64,000 bases of DNA from NCBI RefSeq assembly GCF_018413645.1, contig NZ_JAHCDA010000002.1, forward strand, positions 558,001-622,000, written 5' to 3'. Within the stretch, counting starts at the first letter, position 1. Each line of letters opens with the position of its first letter. Positions 8,584-51,048 of this stretch are shown here, in pieces. This stretch comes from Roseococcus pinisoli. Lineage in GTDB: Bacteria; Pseudomonadota; Alphaproteobacteria; Acetobacterales; Acetobacteraceae. Both the position numbers and the translations under genes were made by a program. The notes beneath the pieces were generated by a model. It had not been told where the DNA came from. It did not search any database and saw nothing but the letters and a program-made list of their open reading frames with translations.

Positions 8584-9108
8584 TCAGACTTTCTCGGCCA
8601 CCTTGATCGCGACCTTGCAGCCGGCCTTGATCACGGCGGAAAGCAACCGGTAGGCGGGCGTCAGCTCGGCCTCGTTTTCGATCCCGATGTCACGATGCTC
8701 CAGCTCCTCGGCACGGAAGCGGGCGATGTCGGCCTTGAGGGCCTTCTCGTCGTCGCCGAGGGTGGCTTCCTGCTCCTGGTAATGCTCGTCGATCGCCTCC
8801 TCCACCGCGACGGTGCAGGCCATGGCGGCGCGATATCCCATCGCGGCCGTGGCAGCGCCGAGCGCGAAGCCGGCGACGTGCCAGAGAGGCAGCAGCGCCG
8901 TGGGCCGCACGCGGCGTTCGGCGATCAGGCGGGAGAAAGCATCGAGATGGACCTGCTCCTGTTCCTGCATGTGCTCGATGATCGGCCCGTGCCGGGTGCC
9001 ACGCAGCACGGCGAGCTGGCCCTGATAGATCCGCTTGGCGCCGTATTCGCCGGCGTGATCCACCCGGATCACCTCTTCGAGGTAGCGACGTGGCGTGGGC
9101 CGGGTCAT
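8584..9108 (-). CDS. coq7: 5-demethoxyubiquinone hydroxylase Coq7
   Basis: A 174-residue di-iron carboxylate protein of ubiquinone biosynthesis that hydroxylates demethoxyubiquinone at the membrane. The diagnostic motifs are IRVDHAGEYGAKRIY near the N-terminus, EQEQVHLDAF (ExxH), TVAVEEAIDEHY and RAEELEHRDIG (second ExxH). Its ATG overlaps the dsbB stop codon by 4 bases, so it is probably co-transcribed with dsbB. Confidence 0.95.
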   Translation of the reverse strand: MTRPTPRRYLEEVIRVDHAGEYGAKRIYQGQLAVLRGTRHGPIIEHMQEQEQVHLDAFSRLIAERRVRPTALLPLWHVAGFALGAATAAMGYRAAMACTVAVEEAIDEHYQEQEATLGDDEKALKADIARFRAEELEHRDIGIENEAELTPAYRLLSAVIKAGCKVAIKVAEKV

Positions 9109-9575
9109 GCGCGGGACTCCTTGCGGGCGAAGCTCCAGGCCAGCAGCGCGACCACGAGCCCGTAGATGGCGTTCATGCCGGCCATGGAGATCGGAAGGCC
9201 GGGGATCAGATGGACTGGAAGGTCACAGGGCTTGGACGGCGTGGGCGACAGCGACCGCATCAGATCATCGACCGACGCGCCCCCCTGCGAGCTCGGCGCC
9301 TGGCATCCCGCCAGCGGCGAGGGCCACCAGCTCCACTCCACCCCAAGATGGAACAGCGCCACCGCCACCGAGGCCAGGGCGGCGAGGCCGGCCAGGCGCA
9401 GCATGGTGCGGCGCGCGACGAAGAGGGAAAGGGCGGCAAGACCCGCCGCGACCCAATAGGGCCAGCGCTGCCACAGGCAGAGCTCGCAGGGGGCGAGGCC
9501 GAACCATCCCTCCGATCCCCTGGCAAAGAGCGGGGCTGCCAGGGACAGCACCAGGATCAGGAGGGAGCCTTGCAT
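9105..9575 (-). CDS. dsbB: Disulfide bond formation protein DsbB
   Basis: A 156-residue polytopic inner-membrane protein that reoxidises DsbA using quinone. It has four membrane segments. The first periplasmic loop carries the CxxC pair C30/C33 (LAPCELCLWQRWPY) and the second carries C91 and C117. I chose the ATG at 9575; a longer in-frame extension to 9974 crosses the small-RNA gene and is not protein-like. It is followed directly by coq7, the quinone-biosynthesis partner. Confidence 0.9.
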   Translation of the reverse strand: MQGSLLILVLSLAAPLFARGSEGWFGLAPCELCLWQRWPYWVAAGLAALSLFVARRTMLRLAGLAALASVAVALFHLGVEWSWWPSPLAGCQAPSSQGGASVDDLMRSLSPTPSKPCDLPVHLIPGLPISMAGMNAIYGLVVALLAWSFARKESRA

Positions 9576-9757
9576 ATCGCTTTGTCCCGCGTTGCATGAT
9601 CTTTCGCAACTGGCCCCGACCAATGGAAGATCAATGCCGGGATGCGCAGAAGGCCAGCCATGCGTGGGTACGGCCCGAGGCCAGGGCTCCCGCGAAGTAG
9701 CGAGGCCAGGATTCGTCGCCTGATACCGCCGCTGAACTTCCGATCCGGCGTTCGGAC

Positions 9758-9788
9758 AAAAAAAATGGCGACCCATTGCTGGGCCGCC
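9758..9788 (-). terminator. Rho-independent terminator of the small RNA
   Basis: The arms 9788-9780 and 9775-9767 form nine pairs with one G-U and a GCAA loop. Eight T residues (9765-9758 on the minus strand) follow. This is the strongest intrinsic terminator in the window, and no protein gene lies directly upstream of it on that strand. Confidence 0.85.
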
Positions 9789-9845
9789 AAGTTTAGGGAG
9801 GAAACGTCCAAGAAAGCAGGCAAGAACCGTAGTTCCTGCCGCCGA
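9758..9845 (-). ncRNA. Predicted trans-acting small RNA with anti-Shine-Dalgarno linker
   Basis: On the minus strand TTGCAT (-35) and TATATG (-10) are 17 bases apart, placing the start near 9845-9843. The transcript would be ~86 nt. Stem 1 is GGCAGGAAC-UACG-GUUCUUGCC (9840-9819): nine pairs including one G-U, closed by a cUACGg tetraloop. A single-stranded linker contains CCUCCC (complementary to Shine-Dalgarno sequences) around 9801-9796. Stem 2 is GGCGGCCCA-GCAA-UGGGUCGCC with a GNRA loop, followed by A and eight U. This is the layout of alphaproteobacterial antisense-type sRNAs, although I cannot assign a named family. 4.5S and 6S signatures are absent. Confidence 0.72.
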
Positions 9846-9850
9846 AGAGA

Positions 9851-9879
9851 CATATAGGCCCAAGGTCGCACGCATGCAA
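9851..9879 (-). promoter_or_regulatory. Sigma-70 type promoter of the small RNA
   Basis: The -35 hexamer TTGCAT (9879-9874) and the -10 hexamer TATATG (9856-9851) are separated by 17 bases on the minus strand. An inverted repeat TGCAA-N8-TTGCA (9875-9892) overlaps the -35 box. Confidence 0.6.
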
Positions 9880-9962
9880 GCGATATTTTGCATTGCAGCA
9901 TTCCTGGGATGCAGAGCTCGCGACCAGCCCCGCGTTGGCACGCCGCTTGCGATGGTCTTGCC

Positions 9963-10679
9963 ATGTCCTGCCACCCTGCCTTCGCCCTCCTTCTTTGGCT
10001 GGCCTTCACGAGCCTATGGCCCGTCCCGGCCAAGGCACAGGCTCCCGATCCCATAGCGCAATGCCGCGCCGCGATCGCGCTCGCCGAAAGGGAAGCGCAG
10101 ATCCCCGCTGGCCTCCTGCAGGCTATCGCCCGGGTGGAATCAGGACGGCGCCATCCGGAATCCGGTCTCTTCGGCCCTTGGCCCTGGACGTTGAACGCCG
10201 AGGGGCGCGGGCAATTCTTCCCTACCCGGGAGGCAGCGATTGCCGCGGTGCGGGACATGCAGAACCGGGGCGTCCGCATCATCGACGTGGGCTGCATGCA
10301 GGTGAACCTCCATCATCACCCCCGCGCCTTCGCCAGCCTCGAGGAGGCTTTCGACCCCGGCGCGAATGCCCGCTACGCGGCCCGCTTTCTCACCGAGCTT
10401 CAATCCAGCCGTGGAGACTGGATGGTCGCGGCGGGCCACTACCATTCCCAGACGCCGGAACTCGCCCAGGCCTATCGCGCGCGGGTTCAGGCCGCCTGGC
10501 CGGCCGAGCAGGCCCGGGCGCTCGCCGCAGGGCCGCCGTTGCTCTCCAATGGGGCGGAGCGTGCCCCGACACTGATGGCATCAAGCCGCGGCCGGGGCCT
10601 CGAAGCCTATCGTGCGGCCCCCATCCCCATCACAGGGCGCCGCCTGGCGATGGTGCCGGCGAGCCTGACCCGGCGCTAG
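9963..10679 (+). CDS. Lytic transglycosylase (SLT domain), secreted
   Basis: A 238-residue protein with a signal peptide (residues 1-25, ending AKAQA). The SLT/lysozyme-like domain carries the catalytic glutamate E59 in IARVESGRR. VGCMQVNLHHHP and AARFLTELQ follow, ending with the GDWMVAAGHYHSQT motif. Family knowledge: it cleaves peptidoglycan glycan strands to make 1,6-anhydromuropeptides. ATG 9963 was chosen because it immediately precedes the signal peptide. The stop codon overlaps the convergent flavoprotein stop by 4 bases. Confidence 0.88.
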   Translation: MSCHPAFALLLWLAFTSLWPVPAKAQAPDPIAQCRAAIALAEREAQIPAGLLQAIARVESGRRHPESGLFGPWPWTLNAEGRGQFFPTREAAIAAVRDMQNRGVRIIDVGCMQVNLHHHPRAFASLEEAFDPGANARYAARFLTELQSSRGDWMVAAGHYHSQTPELAQAYRARVQAAWPAEQARALAAGPPLLSNGAERAPTLMASSRGRGLEAYRAAPIPITGRRLAMVPASLTRR

Positions 10680-20245: not shown

Positions 20246-21217
20246 CTAGCCCGCCTGGGCGCCCGAAATGCGCACCATTTCGGCCCAGCGCGGCTTCTCC
20301 CGCTCCAGCCGGGCGCCGAGCTCGGCGGGGGTGGAGCCCGTCAGAATCGCGCCCATGCCGATCACGCGCTGCTGCAGCGCCGGGTCGGCCCAGGCCGTGC
20401 GGATCTCGTTCGACAGGCGCTCGGCGATCTCGCGCGGCATGCCGGCCGGCCCAGCCCATAGATGCCAGGGGCTGACGTTGAAATTGTCGACGCCCGCCTC
20501 GGCCATGGTCGGCACGTCGGGCATGGTCGGCCAGCGCTGCCCCATGGTGACCGCGAGCGCGCGCATCCGCCCCTCGCCCACGACGCCGACATAACTGGCG
20601 AGGTTGTCGATCGCCAGCTGGACGTCGCCCGAGAGCATCGCCGGGATCGTCTGCGCCGCGCCGCGGAACGGGACATGGACGCCGGGGATTCCGGCCCGGG
20701 CCAGGAAATACGCGCCGGAGAGATGGATGGAGGTGCCAACCCCGGCGGAGCCGTAGCTCACGCCCCCCGGCCGCTCCCGTCCCCAGGCGATGAATTCCTG
20801 CACCGTGCGGGCGGGCACGTATTGCGAGGGCACCGCCATCACGTTCGGCATGTCCCACATGGCGCTGATCCACTGGAAGTCCTTCGACATGTCGAAGGGC
20901 ACCGAGGGGAAGACCATCGGGTTGATGACCACCGTGTGCATGCTGACGGTGCCGAGCGTGTAGCCGTCCGGCGTGGCGCGGGCGAGCGCCTCGGCCGCGA
21001 TGTTGCCCGAGGCGCCGCTGCGCGTTTCGACCACGAAGGTCTGGCCGAGGCGCTGGCCCAGCACCTCGCAGGCCAGCCGCGTCAGCACGTCGAGCGAGCC
21101 GCCCGGCGGAAAGCCCACCAGGACGCGGACCGGGCGATTGGGCCAGGTCCCCTGCGCGAGCGCGGGCGCGGCCAGCGCCAGCGGCGGAACCGCCAGCAGC
21201 GAACGACGAGTGATCAT
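20246..21217 (-). CDS. Bug-family (TctC-like) periplasmic receptor
   Basis: A 323-residue periplasmic protein with a signal peptide (MITRRSLLAVPPLALAAPALAQ) and the Bug signature WPNRPVRVLVGFPPGGSLDVLTR. Further family motifs are VVETRSGASGN, ATPDGYTLG and VPFRGAAQTIPAMLSGDVQ. Bug proteins bind carboxylates, amides or aromatics between two lobes and feed TctAB-type permeases. No tctA/tctB lies in the window. AAGGAAG precedes the chosen ATG. It is probably co-transcribed with the downstream hydratase gene. Confidence 0.92.
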   Translation of the reverse strand: MITRRSLLAVPPLALAAPALAQGTWPNRPVRVLVGFPPGGSLDVLTRLACEVLGQRLGQTFVVETRSGASGNIAAEALARATPDGYTLGTVSMHTVVINPMVFPSVPFDMSKDFQWISAMWDMPNVMAVPSQYVPARTVQEFIAWGRERPGGVSYGSAGVGTSIHLSGAYFLARAGIPGVHVPFRGAAQTIPAMLSGDVQLAIDNLASYVGVVGEGRMRALAVTMGQRWPTMPDVPTMAEAGVDNFNVSPWHLWAGPAGMPREIAERLSNEIRTAWADPALQQRVIGMGAILTGSTPAELGARLEREKPRWAEMVRISGAQAG

Positions 21218-21270
21218 GGTCTTCCTTCCCTTGCAGGCCACTGACGGGCCCATGCGGGAAGCTTAGGACG

Positions 21271-21285
21271 CGTTCGATCCGAACG
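21271..21285. promoter_or_regulatory. Palindrome in the divergent Bug promoter region
   Basis: CGTTCG-ATC-CGAACG is a perfect 6-bp dyad between two divergent Bug genes. It could be an operator shared by both. Evidence is sequence symmetry and position only. Confidence 0.3.
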
Positions 21286-21385
21286 ATATCGCGAAGCGCC
21301 GAGGCGGCATCACGTCGCCGCTTGCCGTGGCGCACCGGGCGGCGTGTGATCGGCGCCACAAAGAACGACAATAAGGATGCAGGGA

Positions 21386-22351
21386 ATGAAACGCCGGACC
21401 GCCTTGACGCTTCCCCTCGCCCTGCCGGCGGTAGCCCTGGCCCAGAGCGCCTATCCCAGCCGGCCTGTTCGCCTCGTGGTCGGCTTTGCGGCCGGTGGCC
21501 CGACCGACGTGATCGGCCGGCTCATCGCCCAGGACATGTCCGCCACCCTCGGCCAGCCCGTGATGGTCGAGAACCGGACGGGCGCCAATGCGCTGATCGC
21601 GACGCAGTTCGTCGCGCGCGAGGCGCCCGACGGCTATACGCTGCTGCTGGCGACGCTCTCGCATAGCGTGAATGCCATCCTGCTGCCGGGAAACAGCTAC
21701 CGCCCTCTCGAGGATTTCACGCCGGTCGGCCTCGTCGCCATGCTGCCGCTGATCGCGGTGACGGGCGCCGGCAGCCCCTTCCGGGACCTCCAGCAGCTGG
21801 TGGCCGCCGCCCGGGAGGCGCCGGGCACCATCTCCTACGGCTCGGCCGGCCATGGCGGTTCGGCGCATCTCGCCGCCGCGCTGTTGGCCACCCGGTCCGG
21901 GACCGAGATGACGCATGTCACCTTCCGCGGCAACGCGCCCGCGCTGACCGAGGTGATGGCCGGCCGCGTCTCCTTCATGTTCTATCCGATGATCGGCATC
22001 GGCGAGTATGTCGCCAAGGGCCAGCTCCGGCCGCTGGCCATCTCGACCGCGGAGCGCAGCGCCGATTATCCGGAAGTGCCGACGATGCGGGAGATCGGTT
22101 ATCCCGGCTTCGAGGACTACACGCAGGGCCTTGGCGTGCTGGCGCCGGCCCATGCGCCCGCGCCGGTCGTGGCCCGGCTCAACGCGGCGGTGCGCGCCTC
22201 GCTGGCCCGATCAGAGACGGCCGCACGGCTGCTAACGCTGGGCGGCATCGCGGCCGCCTCCTCGCCCGAGGAATACGGCACCTTCCTGCGCGAGGATCTG
22301 GAGCGCTGGCGGCGGGTGATCACCGCCGCCCGGATCAGCGCCGAACCCTAG
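21386..22351 (+). CDS. Bug-family (TctC-like) periplasmic receptor
   Basis: A 321-residue receptor with a signal peptide (MKRRTALTLPLALPAVALAQ). Bug motifs are YPSRPVRLVVGFAAGGPTDVIGR, VMVENRTGANALIA and EAPDGYTLLLATLSHS. ATG 21386 was chosen because AAGGA lies eight bases upstream; an ATG three codons earlier has no suitable site. It is divergent from another Bug gene. Its stop codon shares CTAG with the convergent racemase-like gene. Confidence 0.92.
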   Translation: MKRRTALTLPLALPAVALAQSAYPSRPVRLVVGFAAGGPTDVIGRLIAQDMSATLGQPVMVENRTGANALIATQFVAREAPDGYTLLLATLSHSVNAILLPGNSYRPLEDFTPVGLVAMLPLIAVTGAGSPFRDLQQLVAAAREAPGTISYGSAGHGGSAHLAAALLATRSGTEMTHVTFRGNAPALTEVMAGRVSFMFYPMIGIGEYVAKGQLRPLAISTAERSADYPEVPTMREIGYPGFEDYTQGLGVLAPAHAPAPVVARLNAAVRASLARSETAARLLTLGGIAAASSPEEYGTFLREDLERWRRVITAARISAEP

Positions 22352-23199
22352 ACCAGCCTGCGCCGGCGCGAGCGTGCCGGCGGGTCCTTCGGGAGCATCA
22401 GCCCGCTGGCGTCGAGGCCGAGGCGGGCCAGCAGCTTCGCCTGCTCGATCGCGCAGCGGTACCCTTCCAGGACGGGGATGTCCCAACCGGCCTCGTTCAG
22501 GCGCCTCTGGAGGAAGGGCTGCATCCAATAGGCCGCCGAGCAGCCCAGCATCAGCACCTCGGCACCGTCCTCCTGGATCGCCGCCTCGGCGGCGGTGAAG
22601 GCGGCCTCCAGCATGCTGCAGGTCTCGCCGGCCAGGGCCTTTGCCTTTTCGCTCGCGATGGACGGCCGGTCGCTCCGGGTCGGGCGGGGCAGCGGGTAGT
22701 CGAGGTTGCGGATGCCGGTGCAGCGCTCCGTGAAGCGATACTCCACCACCAGCCGCGCCATCTGGACATTGTGCTTCTCGGAGATGTCGATGATCCCGAA
22801 GCGGTGACCCACCATGCTGGCCACATGCATCTGCGCGTGGCCGCAGGAGGTCACGGGAATGCCGTGGCGCCGGCCGATCTCGCGGGCCTCGGCGAAACCC
22901 GGATCGCCGCCGCCGAGCAGGACGATGGCGTCGTACCTGCCGCTCTCGCAGCCCTCGCGCACCAGGGGCAGCCGGTTGGCGCCCACGATCATGAACTCCT
23001 CCAGCGTCTCCACCCCCCAGTCGCCATGGGTGGCCGGCGCGCCGGGATGCACGTCCCACTCCACCTCCGCCAGCAGGGACGCGACGTTGTCGTAGTCCAT
23101 CACCATCTGCTCCCGCGTGCCCTCGGTCGGGCGCAGCGCATAGGAACCGCCGGCGTGGCGGAGGGCGTTGATCAGCAGCAGGCGAGGCTTGGCGGACAT
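22348..23199 (-). CDS. Asp/Glu/hydantoin racemase-superfamily protein with one catalytic Cys
   Basis: A 283-residue soluble protein. LLLGGGDPGFAEAREI aligns with the C(F/W)GDPG motif of hydantoin racemases, but the first catalytic cysteine is replaced by glycine (G96). The second, C220 in LMLGCSAAY, is kept. C119 (TSCGHAQ) is not at the classical position. Racemases need two cysteines; decarboxylases of the superfamily (arylmalonate decarboxylase type) use one. The function is therefore uncertain: decarboxylase, isomerase or a racemase with an unusual pair. It is convergent with a Bug receptor gene. Confidence 0.75.
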   Translation of the reverse strand: MSAKPRLLLINALRHAGGSYALRPTEGTREQMVMDYDNVASLLAEVEWDVHPGAPATHGDWGVETLEEFMIVGANRLPLVREGCESGRYDAIVLLGGGDPGFAEAREIGRRHGIPVTSCGHAQMHVASMVGHRFGIIDISEKHNVQMARLVVEYRFTERCTGIRNLDYPLPRPTRSDRPSIASEKAKALAGETCSMLEAAFTAAEAAIQEDGAEVLMLGCSAAYWMQPFLQRRLNEAGWDIPVLEGYRCAIEQAKLLARLGLDASGLMLPKDPPARSRRRRLV

Positions 23200-23422
23200 C
23201 CGGACGTTCCTTCTTTGGCGCGGCGTCGAGGCAGCCCGCGAGCGGGCAGAAACCTCGGCGACCGCCGCCGCCGGATTGCAGCACGATCCCGCTCGGCTGG
23301 CAGCCCGGTGCCCGGGAAGCGGATCATTCTTGCCACACCGGCGAAATTTTCTTTGAAGGTCGCGGTTTTTCAGGCGATCCGCAGCTTAGCATGACGCCGC
23401 ATTTGCCGAGCCCGTCGATCGC
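23200..23422. other. Divergent promoter region
   Basis: The region lies between the racemase-like gene and the L,D-transpeptidase gene. It is AT-richer near 23340-23375 (AAATTTTCTTTG, GGTTTTTC), which may hold promoters, but no clear -35/-10 pair or terminator can be assigned. Confidence 0.3.
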
Positions 23423-24370
23423 ATGATTCCCCCCCGCCGTTCCTTTGCCGCTTCCCTCCTCCTGGGCGGGCTGCCACTGCTCCTCGGCCGCGCGGCCTCC
23501 GCGCAGACGCGGCCGACGCCGGTCTCCGCGCGCCAGCCGGCCCCGCCGCTGCCCAGGCCGCCCCTGACCCTGGCCGACATCCGGGCGCAGCTCGAGATCG
23601 CGCGGGCCGCCCTGCCCCCCGGCCACCGCAACCGCGTCGCCGTGGAGCGCACCCTCGGCCGGCTAGACGAGATGGGGCTGGACCTCGCCTCCGGCCGCAC
23701 GATCCTGGTGAACATCGCCGCCGCCGAGGTCATGGCCTATGAGGACGGCATCGAGGTTCTCCGCTCCCGCGCCGTGGTCGGCGCCGCGCGGACGCGCACG
23801 CCGCAGATGACCACCTTCGTGACGACGGCGCGCTTCAACCCGCCCTGGTACGTGCCCGCCAGCCTGACGGCCGAGATCCGCGCCGCCGGCGCCGTGGGCT
23901 ACCAGCAGATCGGCGGTCGCTTCATCCAGCCGCCCGGCCCGAACAACGCGCTGGGCCCGATGCGCATCGGCCTCGAGAATTCGGACGGCATCTTCTTGCA
24001 CGGCACCAACCGGCCCAGCCTCTTCAACCAGGGCATGCGGTCGCTGTCGCATGGTTGCGTGCGGGTGGAGAGGGTGCGGGACTTCACCGCCTGGCTGCTC
24101 GACATGCCCGTCGCCACGGTGGACACGATGCTGGCCTCGGGCCGCACGCAGGACGTCCATCCGCTGCGGGAGGTGCAGGTGGCCCTTGCCTATCTCACGA
24201 TCTGGCCGGATCGCACCGGGCAGTTCGTCGTGCATCCGGACCGCTACGGCATGGACGCGCCGGGCGTGCGGCAGGTGGGCTTCCGGCGCGTGCTGCGGCC
24301 GTTGCCGATGACGACCGAGCAGATGGAGGCGGCGGCCCGGCAGCCGCCTCCGGAGGACGATCCCCTCTGA
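23423..24370 (+). CDS. L,D-transpeptidase (YkuD domain)
   Basis: A 315-residue periplasmic enzyme. MIPPRRSFAASLLLGGLPLLLG is a Tat-like signal peptide, followed by a proline-rich linker. The YkuD domain spans ~95-220. H193 lies in FLHGT, and the catalytic motif SHGCVR holds H210, C212 and R214. It forms 3-3 peptidoglycan cross-links or attaches proteins to peptidoglycan. No peptidoglycan-binding domain is clear; residues 50-90 may form a small helical module. No strong ribosome site precedes the ATG. Confidence 0.9.
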   Translation: MIPPRRSFAASLLLGGLPLLLGRAASAQTRPTPVSARQPAPPLPRPPLTLADIRAQLEIARAALPPGHRNRVAVERTLGRLDEMGLDLASGRTILVNIAAAEVMAYEDGIEVLRSRAVVGAARTRTPQMTTFVTTARFNPPWYVPASLTAEIRAAGAVGYQQIGGRFIQPPGPNNALGPMRIGLENSDGIFLHGTNRPSLFNQGMRSLSHGCVRVERVRDFTAWLLDMPVATVDTMLASGRTQDVHPLREVQVALAYLTIWPDRTGQFVVHPDRYGMDAPGVRQVGFRRVLRPLPMTTEQMEAAARQPPPEDDPL

Positions 24371-24391
24371 CGAGGGGCTAGGGCCCTTTCC

Positions 24392-25345
24392 TCAGCCGGC
24401 CCGGATATTCGCCCGGCGGATCGTCTCGCCCCACATGGCGCGCTCGCGGGCGATGCGGGCGGCGAAGGCCTCGGGTCCCTCGAAGCTCGGGGTCAGCCCG
24501 TTCTCCAGCATGCGCCGACGGATGGTGGCATCCGTCAGGGCCCGCTCGGCCGCCTGGGCCCATTGGCGGGCGCTTTCCGCGCTCATGTTCTTCGGGCCGC
24601 ACAGGCCGAACCAGCCCACCACCTCCAGCCCCGGGACGATGTCCGGCAGCCGCGGTGCCTGGGCGAATTCCGGCACGCCCTCGCGATCCGCCAGGGCCAG
24701 CAGCCGCAGCTCGCCGCCCTGGATCTGCCGCACGACGTCGCCGAGGTTGGTGATCATCAGATCCGCGCGGCCGGCAATGACATCCAGCGCCGCGGGCGCC
24801 GCACCGCGATAGGGAACGTGCACCAGGTCGATGCCGGCCATCGAGGCCAGCCGCGCCCCGGTCAGGTGCTGCGCCGACCCCACCCCAGCGCTGCCATAGG
24901 AGATGGTGCCCGGCCGCGCCCGCGCCGCGGCGATCACCTGGGCGAGCGTCTGGTAGGGCCCGCGGGCACCGGTCACCACCCCGTAGGAGGAGATTGCGAC
25001 ATTCGCCACGGGCACCAGGTCCGTCCCCGGGTCGATCGGCAGCACCGCGCCCGGCAGCTCAGGGCTGATCGTCATGCCGCCCATCGCGCATTGCAGCACC
25101 GTCGATCCGTCGGCCGGCCCGCGCGAGACCGCTTCGGCGGCGATGAAGCCATTGGCGCCCGTGCGGTTCTCCACCACGGGCCGCTGGCCCAGCGCGGTGC
25201 CGATCCCCTCGGCCAGCAGGCGTGAGACGAGGTCCGAGGTGCCGCCCGGCGCGAAGCCCGAGACGATTCGCGGCTGCCGGTCCTGCGCCGATGCGGTCAC
25301 CGGCAGGGCCAGGCACAGGCCGGCGAGAAGGAGGAGGCGTCTCAT
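24392..25345 (-). CDS. Bug-family receptor, second of a tandem pair
   Basis: A 317-residue periplasmic receptor with a signal peptide (MRRLLLLAGLCLALPVTASAQ). Motifs are QPRIVSGFAPGGTSDLVSR, VVENRTGANGFIAAEAV and TISPELPGA. It is clearly a paralogue of the next upstream gene, sharing TISPELPGA, SY-SAG and the ANIR C-terminus, so the pair arose by tandem duplication. ATG 25345 starts the signal peptide; an ATG five codons earlier is an alternative. It is probably the last gene of the biotin-carboxylase operon. Confidence 0.9.
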   Translation of the reverse strand: MRRLLLLAGLCLALPVTASAQDRQPRIVSGFAPGGTSDLVSRLLAEGIGTALGQRPVVENRTGANGFIAAEAVSRGPADGSTVLQCAMGGMTISPELPGAVLPIDPGTDLVPVANVAISSYGVVTGARGPYQTLAQVIAAARARPGTISYGSAGVGSAQHLTGARLASMAGIDLVHVPYRGAAPAALDVIAGRADLMITNLGDVVRQIQGGELRLLALADREGVPEFAQAPRLPDIVPGLEVVGWFGLCGPKNMSAESARQWAQAAERALTDATIRRRMLENGLTPSFEGPEAFAARIARERAMWGETIRRANIRAG

Positions 25346-25415
25346 GCGGTCGTTTCCCATTCTTGTCGTTCTTCTTGGCAGTCCCGATGCGCGGGGCGAG
25401 GCCTCGCCGCCCCTG

Positions 25416-26369
25416 TCATTCGACGCGGATATTCGCCCCCTGGATGACCTCGCGCCACGTGACCCGGTCGGCGGCGATGGTGCGGCTGAACTCCGCCGGC
25501 GCCTCGTACCGCGCGACGAGCCCATTCTCGGCGAAGCGCCGCAGCGTGACGGGATCGGAAGCCGCGACGCGGATCGCCTCGGCCCAACGGCCGACGATCG
25601 CCTCGGGCGTTCCACGGCCGGCGCAATAGCCGAACCAGCCGCTGACCGCGTAGCCCGGCACGGTGGCGCCGATCTGCGGCGTGTCCGGGAAGGCCGGCGA
25701 GCCGATGCCGTCGGCAAAGGCCAGCAGCCGCATCTCACCGGCACGGATCTGCTGCGCCGCATCGCCGAGATTGGTGATGATGAGGTCGGCCCGCCCGGCC
25801 AGGACGTCCAGCACGCCCAGAGCCGCGCCGCGGTAGGGAACGTGCAGCATCCGCACCTGGGCCAGCTGCTCAAGGCGCGCGCCGGAAAGGTGCGAGACGG
25901 CGCCGATGCCGGCACTGGCGTAGCTGACCTCGCCCGGCCGCGCGCGGGCGGCGGCCAGCACATCCGCCACCGTGCGGAACGGCGACTGCTGGCGCACCAC
26001 CATGACCTGGGAGGAATGCGCGAAATTCGCGATCGGGATCAGGTCCCGCGCGGGATCGATCGCCATATTGGCGCCCGGCAGCTCCGGCGAGATGGTCATC
26101 ACCCCGGTCGCGCATTGCACGATGGTGTAGCCGTCCGCCCCGCTGCGCGCCGCCTCGGCGGCCGCGATGAAGCCGTTGGCCCCGGTGCGGACTTCCACCA
26201 CCGGCCGATGGCCCAGCGTCGCAAACACGCCCTCGGCCAGGATGCGGTTGATCAGGTCGCTCGTCCCGCCGGCGGCGAAGCCGCCGAGGATGCGCGGCGG
26301 GCGGTCCGGGAAGGTCTGCGCCAAAGCCGTGCCCGACAGCAGCAGCGCGGCGAGCAGGAGGCGCTTCAT
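25416..26369 (-). CDS. Bug-family receptor, first of a tandem pair
   Basis: A 317-residue periplasmic receptor with signal peptide MKRLLLAALLLSGTALAQ and Bug motifs FPDRPPRILGGFAAGGTSDLINR, VVEVRTGANGFIAA and GADGYTIVQ. Its ATG overlaps the carboxyltransferase stop by 4 bases, so the receptor is translationally coupled to an acyl-CoA carboxylase. That context suggests it captures the acid whose CoA ester is carboxylated. Confidence 0.92.
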   Translation of the reverse strand: MKRLLLAALLLSGTALAQTFPDRPPRILGGFAAGGTSDLINRILAEGVFATLGHRPVVEVRTGANGFIAAAEAARSGADGYTIVQCATGVMTISPELPGANMAIDPARDLIPIANFAHSSQVMVVRQQSPFRTVADVLAAARARPGEVSYASAGIGAVSHLSGARLEQLAQVRMLHVPYRGAALGVLDVLAGRADLIITNLGDAAQQIRAGEMRLLAFADGIGSPAFPDTPQIGATVPGYAVSGWFGYCAGRGTPEAIVGRWAEAIRVAASDPVTLRRFAENGLVARYEAPAEFSRTIAADRVTWREVIQGANIRVE

Positions 26370-30356: not shown

Positions 30357-30385
30357 TCAGGGCGAATACGCCCCGGGAGGAAAAG

Positions 30386-32734
30386 ATGGCCGAAGCCCTG
30401 GCGGGAATCCGCGTGCTCGAGGTCGGGCAAGGCGCCGCGTTGGCCTATGCCGGCAAGCTCTTCGCCGATTTCGGCGCGGAGGTGCGGAAGATTGCCGAGG
30501 AGGCGGATCCCCTTGCCTCCGCCTGGCCAAGGCTGGAGGGGCGCTCGGCGCTCCAGGCCTGGCTGAACACGAACAAGCACCTGGTCGAGGGCGATGTCGC
30601 GGCCCTGGCCGCCTCCTGCCACGTCCTGCTGGATGCGCGCCCGACCGCCCGGGAGGCGCTGCCGCCTCACCTCGTCCATACGCGCATCTCGTGGTTCGGC
30701 GCCGAAGGTCCCTATGCGGGCTTCGCCGCCACCGACGTCACCTGCCGCGCCCTGGCCGGCGTCTTCGCCTGCATCGGCCCGGTCGAGGGACCACCCTCCA
30801 TGCTGGGTGGCATCGCCGGGCAGGTGATGGGCGGCATCGCGGCCTATATCGCCAGCACCTCCGCCCTCTGGGGCGGCGGCGGGCGGGAGATGGAGGCCAG
30901 CATCCATGAGGCGAATATCGCCATCGCCGAATACCAGGCGGCGCAGGCCGTCACCAATCCGGAGGTCGAGCAGCGGCGGGGCGTGAACCGCTTCGCGCCC
31001 ACCAGCCCCCTCGGCGTCTATCGCTGCCGGGAGGGATGGCTCGGCGTCACCATCGTGACCCCCGCGCAGTGGCGCGCCTTCTGCGAGATGGTCGGCCTGG
31101 ACGAGCTGGCGCGGGACCCGGCCTTCGCCGTCTGGCCCGAGCGCCTGGCCCATGCCGAGCGGCTGGAAAAGCTCTTCGCCGAGCGCCTGGTCGCCCGCAC
31201 CGCCGAGGAGTGGTTCGCCGAGGCCCTCGAGCGCCGTCTGCCCTTCGCCGTCGTGCCGGAGATGGACACCCTGCTCGCCACGCCCACGCATCGGGCGCGG
31301 GATGCCTTCCAGCGGGTGAAGCTCGGCGCCCTGGAATTCGAGGGGCCGACCCTGCCCCAGCGCCTCACCCGCACGTCCCCGCGCGCCCACGGCATCGCGC
31401 CGCTCGAGCCCATGGCACCGCCGCCGGCCCCCGCCGTGGCTGGCGATAAGGCCAAGGCGGCGCTGCCGCTGGAGGGTCTGCGCGTCCTCGACCTGTCGAT
31501 GGGCTGGGCCGGGCCGGTCTGCACGCGGACGCTGGGCGATCTCGGCGCCGAGATCATCAAGGTGGAGGCCATCCAGTACCCGGACTGGTGGCGGGGGGTC
31601 GATCCGCGACAGTCCTTCTTCGACCAGAAGCTCTACGAGAAGGATGTGCGCTTCGCCTTCCAGAACCGCAATAAGCGCGGGATCACGCTGGACCTCAGCC
31701 GGCCGGAGGGTGCGGCGCTGCTCAAGCGGCTCGTCGCCCAATGCGATGCCGTGGTGGAAAACTACGCCCGCGACGTGCTGCCGAAGCTCGGCCTCGACTA
31801 TGCGGTACTCCGCCATTCGCGGCCCGACCTCGTGATGCTCTCCATGCCCGCCTTCGGGGCGACCGGCCCCTGGCGCGATGCGCGGGCCTATGGCTCGACG
31901 CTGGAGCATGCCTCGGGCCTGCCCACCGTCTCGGGTCCGGCGGACGGGCCGCCGCTCACGAACCAGCTCGCCTACGGCGACCCCGTGGGCGGCATGAATG
32001 CGGCGGCCGCGCTGCTGACGGCGCTGCTGCACCGCAAATCCACCGGCGAAGGGCAGCACATCGACCTCGCGCAGGTCGAGTGCATGTTCCCGCTCGCCGC
32101 GCCCTGGATCATCGCGCAATCGGCGCTCGGCGATCCCGGCCCGCGTCGCGGCAATCGCCATCCCGACCAGGTGCCGCATGGCGCTTTCCCTTGCGAGAAC
32201 GAGGGATGGGTCGCCATCGCCGTCACCGACAACGGCGCCTGGGCGCGGCTTTGCTCCCTGCTGGACCGCGCCGATCTGGCCGGGCTCGACCTCGCGGCGC
32301 GGCGCGCGCGTGAGGGCGAGTTGGAGGCGCTGCTCTCCACCTGGACCCGCAGCCGCAACGCCGATGCGGCCATGGACGCCCTGCAGGCGAAGGGCGTCGC
32401 CGCCGGCGTCCTGCGCTGGCCGACCGAGCTTCGGCAGGACACGCATCTGCGCGCGCGCGGCTTCTGGCAGGAGGTGGACCGCCCCTTCCTCGGCCGGCAC
32501 GAGCTGCCCTCCGCCCCGATCCGCCTCGCGGGCGGGCCGCCCTTGAAGATCTTCCGGGCGGCGCCGACGCTGGGCGAGGAGAATTCGGCCGTGCTGTCGG
32601 AGCTGCTGGGGCTGTCCGCGGCCGAGCTCGCCGCGCTGGAGCAGGACGGCATCATCGGCACCGACGCCGTACCGGTCACGGCGCGCAAGCCGCGCAGCAG
32701 CCCGCAGGCCAAGCCTCAGCCAGCGAGCGCCTGA
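30386..32734 (+). CDS. Fused double-domain CaiB/BaiF (class III) CoA-transferase
   Basis: A 782-residue protein with two CaiB/BaiF domains in tandem (residues ~4-350 and ~360-750), where most family members are single-domain dimers. The C-terminal half has the full signature: LEGLRVLDLSMGWAGPVCTRTLGDLGAEIIKVE, FQNRNKRGITLDLS, and GDPVGG with the candidate catalytic aspartate D532. At the equivalent place the N-terminal half reads GGIAGQVMGG with no aspartate, so it may be a structural half. AGGA precedes the ATG. It presumably activates the imported acid for the neighbouring carboxylase. Confidence 0.9.
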   Translation: MAEALAGIRVLEVGQGAALAYAGKLFADFGAEVRKIAEEADPLASAWPRLEGRSALQAWLNTNKHLVEGDVAALAASCHVLLDARPTAREALPPHLVHTRISWFGAEGPYAGFAATDVTCRALAGVFACIGPVEGPPSMLGGIAGQVMGGIAAYIASTSALWGGGGREMEASIHEANIAIAEYQAAQAVTNPEVEQRRGVNRFAPTSPLGVYRCREGWLGVTIVTPAQWRAFCEMVGLDELARDPAFAVWPERLAHAERLEKLFAERLVARTAEEWFAEALERRLPFAVVPEMDTLLATPTHRARDAFQRVKLGALEFEGPTLPQRLTRTSPRAHGIAPLEPMAPPPAPAVAGDKAKAALPLEGLRVLDLSMGWAGPVCTRTLGDLGAEIIKVEAIQYPDWWRGVDPRQSFFDQKLYEKDVRFAFQNRNKRGITLDLSRPEGAALLKRLVAQCDAVVENYARDVLPKLGLDYAVLRHSRPDLVMLSMPAFGATGPWRDARAYGSTLEHASGLPTVSGPADGPPLTNQLAYGDPVGGMNAAAALLTALLHRKSTGEGQHIDLAQVECMFPLAAPWIIAQSALGDPGPRRGNRHPDQVPHGAFPCENEGWVAIAVTDNGAWARLCSLLDRADLAGLDLAARRAREGELEALLSTWTRSRNADAAMDALQAKGVAAGVLRWPTELRQDTHLRARGFWQEVDRPFLGRHELPSAPIRLAGGPPLKIFRAAPTLGEENSAVLSELLGLSAAELAALEQDGIIGTDAVPVTARKPRSSPQAKPQPASA

Positions 32735-37173: not shown

Positions 37174-38151
37174 TTACTCCGGCCGGAGGCCCCGGCGACG
37201 GATGAACTCGCCCCAGACCTGGCTGTCGCTGGCCATGCGGGCCTGCAGGTCGGCCGGCGAGCCGGACCAGGCGATCAGCAGATTATCCGCCAGACGCTTC
37301 TGCACCGTCTCGTCCGCGAGCGCCGTCCGCACCGCGGCATTGAGCTGGTTCACGACGGGCGCCGGCATGCCGGCCGGACCCACAATGGCGAACCAGCCCG
37401 GCATGACCGGCGCATCGATTCCCGCCTCGGCCTGCGTGGGAACGTCCGGCAGGACCGGCAGGCGCTGCGCCGACACCATGGCCAGCGGCGTCACCGCGCC
37501 GGCCCGCACCTGGGCCAGCGCCACGGCCAGCACCAGGATCATCACATCCGTCTCGCCGGTGATGACGCTGGTGAGCGCCGCGGCCGTGCCGCCATAGGGC
37601 ACGTGGGTGAAGCTGACGCCGGCGCGGTCGGCCAGCATCTCCATGGAAAGATGGGTCGAATTGCCGATGCCCGCGCTGGCATAGGTCAGGCGGCCGGGCT
37701 CGGCCCGCGCGCGGCGCAGCAGCTCCGCCACACTCGTGATGCCCGACTTCTTGCTGGCCAGCAGGATGAAGGGCGCGTCCGAGGCGGGGGCAACGAAGGT
37801 GAAGTCCGTCGCCGCATCATAGGTCAGGTTCGGATAGAGGAACGGATTGAACGAGAGCTGGGACACGCCCGGCATCAGCAGCGTGTAGCCGTCGGGCGCC
37901 TGCTGCTTCAGCCCGTTGATCGCGACCATGCCATTGGCGCCGGGGCGGTTGTCCACCACCACCGGCTGGCCGAGTGCGCGGCCCATCGGCTCGGAGATGA
38001 TGCGCGCCACCACGTCGTTGGCCGAGCCCGGGGGCTGCGGCAGCAGCAGGCGGATGGGGCGCGTCGGGAATGCCTGCGCCGGCGCCTGGGCCTGGGCCGC
38101 ACCGGCGGAGAGGAAGGGGATGGCGGCGAGGCCGCGGCGGGAGATCATCAT
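37174..38151 (-). CDS. Bug-family receptor linked to a hydrolase
   Basis: A 325-residue periplasmic receptor with signal peptide MMISRRGLAAIPFLSAGAAQAQ and Bug motifs FPTRPIRLLLPQPPGSANDVVAR, VVVDNRPGANGMVAING and APDGYTLLMPG. It starts four bases after the stop codon of the CocE/NonD hydrolase gene, so the two form an operon. The receptor probably imports the hydrolase substrate or product. Confidence 0.92.
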   Translation of the reverse strand: MMISRRGLAAIPFLSAGAAQAQAPAQAFPTRPIRLLLPQPPGSANDVVARIISEPMGRALGQPVVVDNRPGANGMVAINGLKQQAPDGYTLLMPGVSQLSFNPFLYPNLTYDAATDFTFVAPASDAPFILLASKKSGITSVAELLRRARAEPGRLTYASAGIGNSTHLSMEMLADRAGVSFTHVPYGGTAAALTSVITGETDVMILVLAVALAQVRAGAVTPLAMVSAQRLPVLPDVPTQAEAGIDAPVMPGWFAIVGPAGMPAPVVNQLNAAVRTALADETVQKRLADNLLIAWSGSPADLQARMASDSQVWGEFIRRRGLRPE

Positions 38152-50076: not shown

Positions 50077-51048
50077 TTATTCCGGCTGCACCCCGGCGAG
50101 CCTCAACAGCTGCTGGGCACGGTCGAAGTCGCGCTGGATGTAATCGTCCAGCTCGGCGCCCTTCTGGAAGAGCGGCACGATGGCCAGGCCTTCGAGCCGG
50201 GCCTTCACCGCCGGCTCGGCCATGATCGCCTCGACTTCTTCGGCGATCCGCGCGGTGATGGTGTCCGGCGTGCGCGGCGGCGCCCAGACCACCCACCAGG
50301 ACTGTGCGTCGACCTCGGGGAAGCCGGATTCGGCCGTCGTCGCCAGCTCCGGCGCAGCGGCGTTGCGCCGGGGCGCCGTCAGCGCCAGGCCGCGCAGGTT
50401 GCCGGCGCGGACCGGCGGCAGCATCGCCAGCATCGGGTCAATCTGCACGCCGATGCTGCCGCCCATCAGATCGGCCAGCGCGGGCGTCGTGCCGCGATAG
50501 GGCACAAGCGTGACGTCGGCGCCGATGGCCCGGGTAAACTGGATCGTGGAAAGATGGCCCGCCGATCCGAGCGCCGAGACGCCGAAGGACCAGTCGCGCG
50601 GATTGGCCCGGGCGGCGTCCTTCACTTCGGCCATGGTCCGCTGCGGACGGTTCGGGTTGCTGGCGATGAGGCAGGGCCCCTCGCCGGTCCGCGCGATGGG
50701 CTTCAGGTCGGTAAGCGGGTCATAGCCCGGATTGCGCATCACCAGCCGAGCGATGGTCTGCACGCTGGCCGAGATCAGCAGCGTGTAGCCATCCGGCGTC
50801 GCGGTCGACACCGCGATGCCGCCGATCGTGCCATTCGCGCCCGCGCGGTTGTCGACGGTGAAGGCCTGGCCTGTCCGCTCCTGCAGCCGCATCGCGACCA
50901 CCCGCGCCATGACGTCCACCGAGCCACCGGCCGCGAAGGGGACGACGATGCGCACGGGGCGCTGGGGCCAGACCGACTGCCCGAGCACCGGGGGAGCGGC
51001 CAGCGGCACGGCGGCCGCCGCGGTGAAGAGAGCTCGGCGCGTCGTCAT
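50077..51048 (-). CDS. Bug-family receptor linked to an SDR
   Basis: A 323-residue periplasmic receptor with a signal peptide (MTTRRALFTAAAAVPLAAPPVLG). Motifs are WPQRPVRIVVPFAAGGSVDVMAR, FTVDNRAGANGTIGG and ATPDGYTLLISAS. Its ATG overlaps the SDR stop codon by one base (TGATG), so the two are translationally coupled and the SDR probably acts on the imported compound. Confidence 0.92.
   Translation of the reverse strand: MTTRRALFTAAAAVPLAAPPVLGQSVWPQRPVRIVVPFAAGGSVDVMARVVAMRLQERTGQAFTVDNRAGANGTIGGIAVSTATPDGYTLLISASVQTIARLVMRNPGYDPLTDLKPIARTGEGPCLIASNPNRPQRTMAEVKDAARANPRDWSFGVSALGSAGHLSTIQFTRAIGADVTLVPYRGTTPALADLMGGSIGVQIDPMLAMLPPVRAGNLRGLALTAPRRNAAAPELATTAESGFPEVDAQSWWVVWAPPRTPDTITARIAEEVEAIMAEPAVKARLEGLAIVPLFQKGAELDDYIQRDFDRAQQLLRLAGVQPE

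What the first reader, a model, noticed from the sequence alone, without database searches (positions are those of the whole stretch)
9758..9879. Unannotated small RNA with anti-Shine-Dalgarno linker between dsbB and a transglycosylase gene
Seen directly: a 17-bp-spaced promoter (TTGCAT/TATATG), a nine-pair stem with a cUACGg tetraloop, a CCUCCC single-stranded linker, and a terminator stem with a GCAA loop followed by eight U. All parts are in the right order and spacing for an ~86-nt transcript, and no protein gene explains the terminator. Known: several alphaproteobacterial sRNAs use CCUCC-type loops to block ribosome binding sites. Inference: this is a trans-acting regulator, possibly of the many transport genes. 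Family assignment is open.
Basis: partly seen in the sequence, partly recalled or inferred. Interest (0 to 1): 0.72.

Follow-up and report, generated by a model that had tools for sequence, protein, structure and literature searches.

The report
MmgR-type sRNA under predicted PhaR control
The sequence is a small regulatory RNA gene of a known family (alpha-r8/MmgR), and its surroundings suggest that the cell's carbon-store (PHB) sensor controls it and that it damps the making of carbon-uptake receptors, a testable new link within a known kind of system.

Summary
In detail: promoter, 9-pair UNCG-type hairpin, CCUCCC linker and terminator lie on the minus strand where stated. "Family assignment is open" is wrong: Rfam RF00519 (suhB/MmgR) matches with 50.5 bits, cut-off 41. 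The RNA carries the alpha-r8 10-mer UUUCCUCCCU and is one of three copies in this genome; 44 of 60 genomes searched, own one included, have the family. It lies divergently beside the same transglycosylase gene in 67 of 80 related loci.

New here: a PhaR (AniA) box core, YGCRNYGCR, stands just before the -35 in 37 of 37 distinct copies of this type, but in 1 of 18 of a second type. One of three phasin promoters of the same genome has the same layout. PhaR binding of the mmgR promoter was shown in Sinorhizobium (PMC12542648). Start regions of TctC/Bug uptake receptors (at least 150 genes) pair better with the RNA than those of other genes.

Best reading: stored PHB titrates PhaR, the RNA rises, and its anti-Shine-Dalgarno seed blocks receptor translation. 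Membership near certain; PhaR control likely; receptor targets a supported prediction without experiment.

The parts
9889..9897 (-). PhaR (AniA) box-like core TGCAATGCA (YGCRNYGCR) just upstream of the -35
   Evidence: motif from PMC12542648 (passages); such a core in 37/37 distinct type A copies and 65/66 distinct copies beside the transglycosylase gene
9874..9879 (-). -35 element TTGCAT
   Evidence: TTGC at this place in most type A promoters, by eye
9851..9856 (-). -10 element TATATG (17-nt spacing)
9758..9843 (-). alpha-r8/MmgR-type small RNA, about 86 nt (start inferred from the promoter, end from the U run)
   Evidence: RF00519 match 9751-9824, 50.5 bits, cut-off 41; fold z -5.4
9819..9840 (-). 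5' hairpin, nine pairs, UACG (UNCG-type) loop
   Evidence: all cells paired in 14 same-genus sequences
9795..9804 (-). seed UUUCCUCCCU (family 10-mer, anti-Shine-Dalgarno CCUCC)
   Evidence: its first nine bases occur in all 92 loci fetched around RF00519 hits (duplicates included, 65 distinct places); 10-mer described in PMC12559287
9758..9789 (-). intrinsic terminator: 10-pair stem, GCAA loop, eight U
   Evidence: compensatory changes in the stem
9963..10679 (+). divergent neighbour: SLT-domain transglycosylase gene, recurring partner of this copy
   Evidence: PF01464; 67 of 80 related loci carry the sRNA beside it
9105..9572 (-). dsbB, downstream on the same strand, separated by the terminator (not part of the sRNA)
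   Evidence: PF02600; distance 141 to 1273 nt in the loci where it was found

Best explanation
It is an alpha-r8 (MmgR/SisA-type, Rfam RF00519) small RNA gene of an acetobacterium close to Roseococcus and Rubritepida. Shown here by computation: family membership, conserved stems and seed, and a conserved PhaR-type box at the promoter. Inferred: (1) PhaR represses the promoter when no PHB is stored; PHB granules titrate PhaR away and the RNA is then made, together with a phasin. (2) The UUUCCUCCCU seed, helped by Hfq, pairs with ribosome-binding sites and lowers translation. (3) In this genome the main target class is the very large set of TctC/Bug solute-binding receptors, so that full carbon stores damp further uptake. 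The two other copies have the core of the seed but no box of this kind, so they may apply a similar brake under other signals.
For: RF00519 above cut-off; three copies in the genome; 44 of 60 genomes have the family. Stems: 99.0% of 308 cells paired; covariation score 0.267 against 0.155 shuffled, 0 of 500 as high; slid versions 0.047-0.103. PhaR box: 37/37 type A, 1/18 type B, 5/10 others; background 139 of 1072 segments of 120 nt. Of 80 transglycosylase loci 67 hold the RNA; 65 of 66 distinct ones have the box (background 223 of 5021 segments of 41 nt), 22 of 66 a second one near the start. One phasin promoter has the two-box layout. PhaR, phasins, PhaC, Hfq are present. RNA and PhaR co-occur: 38 both, 6 RNA only, 3 PhaR only, 13 neither, p 2e-6. 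Targets: 98 Bug against 219 other genes, duplex energy p 8e-7; 0 of 100 CCUCC-keeping shuffled seeds separate the classes as well. GGGAGGAAA before ATG: 6 of the 13 frames of 80 aa or more are TctC genes; in the genus 13 of 24. Elsewhere, by experiment: PhaR binds the mmgR promoter; SisA represses targets, with pairing of this seed predicted for them.
Against: No transcript, Hfq binding, PhaR binding or repression is shown in this organism. Receptor genes are paralogues and may share ribosome sites by descent; they also pair better with the 16S tail (p 0.003), and in absolute strength on Bug sites 8 of 100 shuffled seeds do as well as the real one. Of 35 hexamers tested, the two most enriched before Bug genes are not in the seed complement. 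Gene starts come from a home-made caller. Sites lacking the first G are receptor-rich too: 7 of 35 sites against 6 of 21. Only one of three phasin genes showed the boxes. Six genomes have the RNA with no PhaR found; three of these are at least 90% complete, and one (G018) keeps the box. Genome size confounds the co-occurrence.
Confidence: 0.6

Rival explanations
1. It is an ordinary alpha-r8 RNA that tunes PHB storage through phasin mRNAs, as MmgR is thought to do; the match to uptake receptors is only shared Shine-Dalgarno sequence among paralogues.
For: Family and PhaR box as above. MmgR affects phasins and PHB in S. meliloti (review passages). One phasin mRNA pairs well, -18.6 kcal/mol, reached by 3.7% of non-Bug genes. 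Bug genes pair better with the 16S tail too.
Against: The other two phasin mRNAs pair less well, -16.2 and -9.4. None of 100 seeds shuffled around a fixed CCUCC separates Bug from other genes as the real seed does. In one Bug group seen in six same-genus genomes GGGAGGAAAC is kept while the spacer to the start varies.
Confidence: 0.3
2. It is a leader or attenuator of dsbB rather than a free sRNA.
For: Same strand as dsbB, ending about 186 nt before its start.
Against: A full terminator lies in between. In relatives dsbB was found at 141 to 1273 nt, or not found in the stretch, while the recurring neighbour is the divergent transglycosylase gene. Two further copies lie elsewhere, one between an RNase J and a class II tRNA-synthetase gene.
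Confidence: 0.03
3. It acts mainly as a general translation damper or sponge partner through CCUCC, without a defined target class.
For: The seed contains the generic anti-Shine-Dalgarno core. SisA in Caulobacter has a broad network and is itself sponged by CrfA.
Against: Bug genes remain favoured after subtracting the 16S pairing energy, p 7e-4.
Confidence: 0.15

Closest known systems
MmgR (alpha-r8, Rfam RF00519), Sinorhizobium meliloti
   Same: Family model matched over its full length; anti-Shine-Dalgarno seed before a terminator; a PhaR (AniA) box at the promoter, bound by PhaR there (PMC12542648, passages).
   Different: This copy lies beside a transglycosylase gene; three copies, where S. 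meliloti has one; strong 5' hairpin with a UNCG-type loop; predicted targets are TctC/Bug receptors.
SisA-D (alpha-r8), Caulobacter crescentus
   Same: Same 10-mer; several copies with unlike promoters; repression by SisA shown (PMC12559287: abstract, sections 7 and 9, Discussion passages).
   Different: sisA lies beside an FGase gene and the sis promoters share no motif there; here one copy type has a PhaR box. A CrfA-like sponge was not sought here.
AbcR1/AbcR2 (alpha-r15)
   Same: Anti-Shine-Dalgarno sRNAs whose predicted targets are rich in ABC-transporter mRNAs (review PMC7143759, passages).
   Different: AbcR has 114-120 nt, three stem-loops and two anti-SD motifs; this RNA has about 86 nt, two main hairpins and one motif.

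Membership tests
alpha-r8 / RF00519 (suhB, MmgR) | Covariance-model score above the curated cut-off over the whole model | tested here: met
   50.5 bits, cut-off 41, model 1-77 of 77
alpha-r8 / RF00519 (suhB, MmgR) | 10-mer UUUCCUCCCU | tested here: met
   9804-9795 on the minus strand
alpha-r8 / RF00519 (suhB, MmgR) | Rho-independent terminator downstream of the 10-mer | tested here: met
   compensatory changes
alpha-r8 / RF00519 (suhB, MmgR) | Hairpin upstream of the 10-mer (called weak in Caulobacter, PMC12559287) | tested here: met
   Present but strong, nine pairs
alpha-r8 / RF00519 (suhB, MmgR) | Usual (not defining) position beside an N-formylglutamate amidohydrolase gene | tested here: not met
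   Neighbours of the window copy are DsbB and SLT; of the C6 copy RNase J and a class II tRNA synthetase; of the C7 copy an NlpA protein and a protein without Pfam match; only near neighbours, within about 1.5 kb, were looked at
alpha-r8 / RF00519 (suhB, MmgR) | Hfq binding | not testable with these tools
   An hfq gene is present; binding needs an experiment
PhaR (AniA) regulon | YGCRNYGCR box at the promoter | tested here: met
   9897-9889; 37/37 type A copies; one mismatch to the full 21-mer of PMC12542648, counted by eye
PhaR (AniA) regulon | PhaR binding, and more RNA without PhaR | not testable with these tools
   phaR gene present
AbcR (alpha-r15) | Two anti-SD motifs and three stem-loops in 114-120 nt | tested here: not met
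   One motif, two main hairpins, about 86 nt; no other Rfam family reached its cut-off in the window

The most novel reading that the evidence does not exclude
A carbon-satiety brake: PHB granules titrate PhaR, freeing an alpha-r8 sRNA that shuts down translation of many of the 150 or more TctC/Bug uptake receptors at once, with sibling sRNAs applying a similar brake under other signals. It would be old in Acetobacteraceae, and its PhaR-to-sRNA step would be shared with Sinorhizobium.
Probability: 0.4. Interest if true: 0.66.

Novelty: new member of a known kind. Interest (0 to 1): 0.45.

Why it matters
PMC12559287 (Discussion passages) states that MmgR had been the only characterised alpha-r8 RNA and that no direct base-pairing partner of MmgR has been identified. 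A PhaR-type box kept across genera ties the RNA to the carbon-storage sensor well outside Sinorhizobium. The predicted receptor regulon gives a concrete target class to test in a lineage whose genome holds at least 150 TctC genes. My searches of the held library showed, by their listings only, no paper on sRNA control of TctC receptors in Alphaproteobacteria or on PhaR control of an sRNA in Acetobacteraceae; the library lacks most subscription journals.

Tried and rejected
A GGAGGB-N-ATG pattern as a Shine-Dalgarno control was useless: 1746 hits against 269 for the pattern read backwards, rows cut, many likely inside genes. A 4-pair GUUU/AAAC stem that would put CCUCCCU in a loop: three of its four pairs never vary and the fourth breaks in 3 of 14 rows; 58 of 65 distinct copies can form all four pairs, but the minimum-energy fold does not form them, so it is not claimed. 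The dsbB-leader reading was rejected (see rivals). Weak Rfam matches (rpsL_pseudo, NmsRb, sau-6072, ncS025) lie far below their cut-offs. Specificity for the ninth pair (GGGAGGAAA against HGGAGGAAA) was not supported: 6 of 21 and 7 of 35 sites lie before TctC genes. Paper searches returned no paper.

Rows dropped: copies were found by the string TTTCCTCCC, and type A was defined by TTGGACG before it, so those letters are invariant in A1 and A2 by construction. A1 holds 25 of 37 distinct type A copies. A2 holds 14: same-genus copies with the same 5' hairpin; three same-genus copies with other hairpins and four rows identical in that span were left out, as were the other genera. The energy test used 317 called genes after removing duplicates and none of the loci fetched by ribosome-site pattern. 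Genus pattern: 61 hits (4 own), 2 for the pattern read backwards; loci existed for 28 of the 57 hits outside the own genome, 24 of them with a frame of 80 aa or more. Not all RF00519 hits were fetched: of the matches mainly the stronger ones were taken.

Full report
WHAT IS THERE. The sigma-70 scan lists no promoter, but in 37 distinct type A promoters TTGC at the -35 and a cTA-type -10 recur at nearly the same distance in most (listing, by eye; a crude automatic test of the -35 passed 27 of 37).

WHAT IT IS. Rfam RF00519 (suhB, "Makes More Granules Regulator RNA, mmgR") matches 9824-9751 on the minus strand with 50.5 bits, cut-off 41, over all 77 model positions. The genome has three copies over the cut-off: the window copy, here called type A (UUGGACG before the seed); one on contig C6 between an RNase J gene and a class II tRNA-synthetase gene, type B (GUGUGACUGGCG before the seed); and one on C7 beside an NlpA-type protein gene. 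Of 60 genomes searched, the own one included, 44 have a match, 43 of them over the cut-off. The family is alpha-r8: MmgR in Sinorhizobium and SisA-D in Caulobacter, with UUUCCUCCCU and a terminator (PMC12559287, section 7 and Discussion passages). The organism is close to Roseococcus and Rubritepida: contigs of same-genus genomes have the lengths of records so named, e.g. 1351182 bases (inference).

CONSERVATION. In 14 same-genus sequences with the same 5' hairpin, 99.0% of 308 pair cells are standard pairs (shuffled 93.7%), 17 cells change on both sides (shuffled 4.9) and the covariation score is 0.267 (shuffled 0.155; 0 of 500 as high); sliding the partners gives at most 0.103. The number of pairs with a double change (4) is not above shuffles (158 of 500 as high), and related sequences can exceed shuffles without structure. 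TTTCCTCCC occurs in all 92 loci fetched around covariance-model hits (65 distinct places); the tenth base differs in at least two copies. The window copy's recurring neighbour is the divergent SLT transglycosylase gene: of 80 loci fetched by that protein, 67 hold the RNA, found by its exact core. The records name Roseococcus, Rubritepida, Neoroseomonas, Elioraea and others, and Tepidicaulis, which lies outside the Acetobacteraceae as I recall. The other 13 of 80 were not followed up. Several of the 80 are the same genomes as, so the two sets overlap.

PhaR BOX. Every distinct type A copy (37 of 37) has YGCRNYGCR at -84 to -97 from the core, just before the -35; type B has a box in the region in 1 of 18, the remaining copies in 5 of 10, background 120-nt segments of the same loci in 139 of 1072. 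Type A copies are not all orthologues; some genomes have two. In the transglycosylase loci 65 of 66 distinct copies have the box, background 41-nt segments 223 of 5021; 22 of 66 have a second one near the expected start, for which I computed no background. This is the core of the PhaR (AniA) motif WNWDDNYGCRNYGCRNHHWNW of S. meliloti, where PhaR shifts the mmgR promoter in EMSA, loss of PhaR raises MmgR, and PHB sequesters PhaR (PMC12542648, abstract start and passages). In the window's own genome one phasin gene has two such boxes around a CTTGCA -35 and a TAGATA -10 (by eye), the layout that many relatives' sRNA promoters show; the other two phasin genes showed no such box before the gene. 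PhaR, three phasins, two PhaC and one Hfq are present. Over the 60 genomes the RNA and PhaR co-occur (38 both, 6 RNA only, 3 PhaR only, 13 neither; p 2e-6). Many small genomes lack both, so size confounds this. Of the six RNA-only genomes three are under 90% complete; G018 (91%) keeps the box.

TARGETS. The perfect complement GGGAGGAAA 2-9 nt before ATG occurs 21 times in the own genome and 0 times for the pattern read backwards. Thirteen of the 21 open a frame of 80 aa or more, and 6 of these 13 are TctC/Bug genes by place. The genome has at least 150 TctC genes (150 of 160 candidates were scored). Choosing genes without regard to the ribosome site, 98 Bug genes pair better with the seed region than 219 other genes (median -15.0 against -11.7 kcal/mol, p 8e-7). 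The difference for the 16S tail is smaller (p 0.003), and none of 100 seeds with CCUCC kept and the rest shuffled separates the classes as well; but 8 of 100 bind Bug sites as strongly in absolute terms. GAGGAAAC stands before 6 of 98 Bug and 0 of 219 other genes, one of 18 strings tried in that call; of 35 hexamers tested the two most enriched are not in the seed complement, the next two are. In the genus 13 of 24 testable GGGAGGAAAC sites belong to Bug genes, among them one group in six genomes whose spacer varies while the site stays. Limits: paralogy, home-made gene starts, no experiment, and sites lacking the ninth pair are receptor-rich as well (7 of 35 against 6 of 21 sites).

MODEL. 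Shown elsewhere: PhaR sensing of PHB and binding of the mmgR promoter; repression of targets by SisA, with seed pairing predicted. Shown here by computation: membership, conserved box, bias of receptor start regions. Inferred: PHB accumulates, PhaR is titrated, the RNA is made, receptor translation falls. The main rival, a phasin-centred role, gets mixed support: -18.6, -16.2 and -9.4 kcal/mol for the three phasins.

VERDICT. I put membership at about 0.97, PhaR control at about 0.8 and the receptor regulon at about 0.5; these are judgements.

Noticed in passing
window 9865-9884 (minus strand) and the same place in some same-genus copies (listing): In some same-genus promoters an imperfect palindrome ATCGCTTGCATGCGAGCGAT overlies the -35; it is less symmetric in the window copy. 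It could be a second operator.
   Followed up: no
whole genome G000; six in the window, at about 20366-26252 (four), 37186-38010 and 50101-50907: At least 150 TctC/Bug receptor genes in a 4.8-Mb genome, a very large expansion.
   Followed up: partly
L002 about 1480-1510: The type B copy between the RNase J and class II tRNA-synthetase genes has a pyrimidine-rich hairpin arm (UUCCUCUUUCU) that resembles the 16S anti-Shine-Dalgarno tail (recalled), and lacks the PhaR box.
   Followed up: no
window 9105-9974 (minus strand): A mechanical 289-aa open frame runs through the sRNA into dsbB; only the part from 9572 on was tested and matched DsbB.
   Followed up: partly
window 30375-30388 (plus strand): A perfect GGGAGGAAA site stands before the start of a CaiB-like (by eye) gene inside the window; predicted target of the sRNA.
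   Followed up: no
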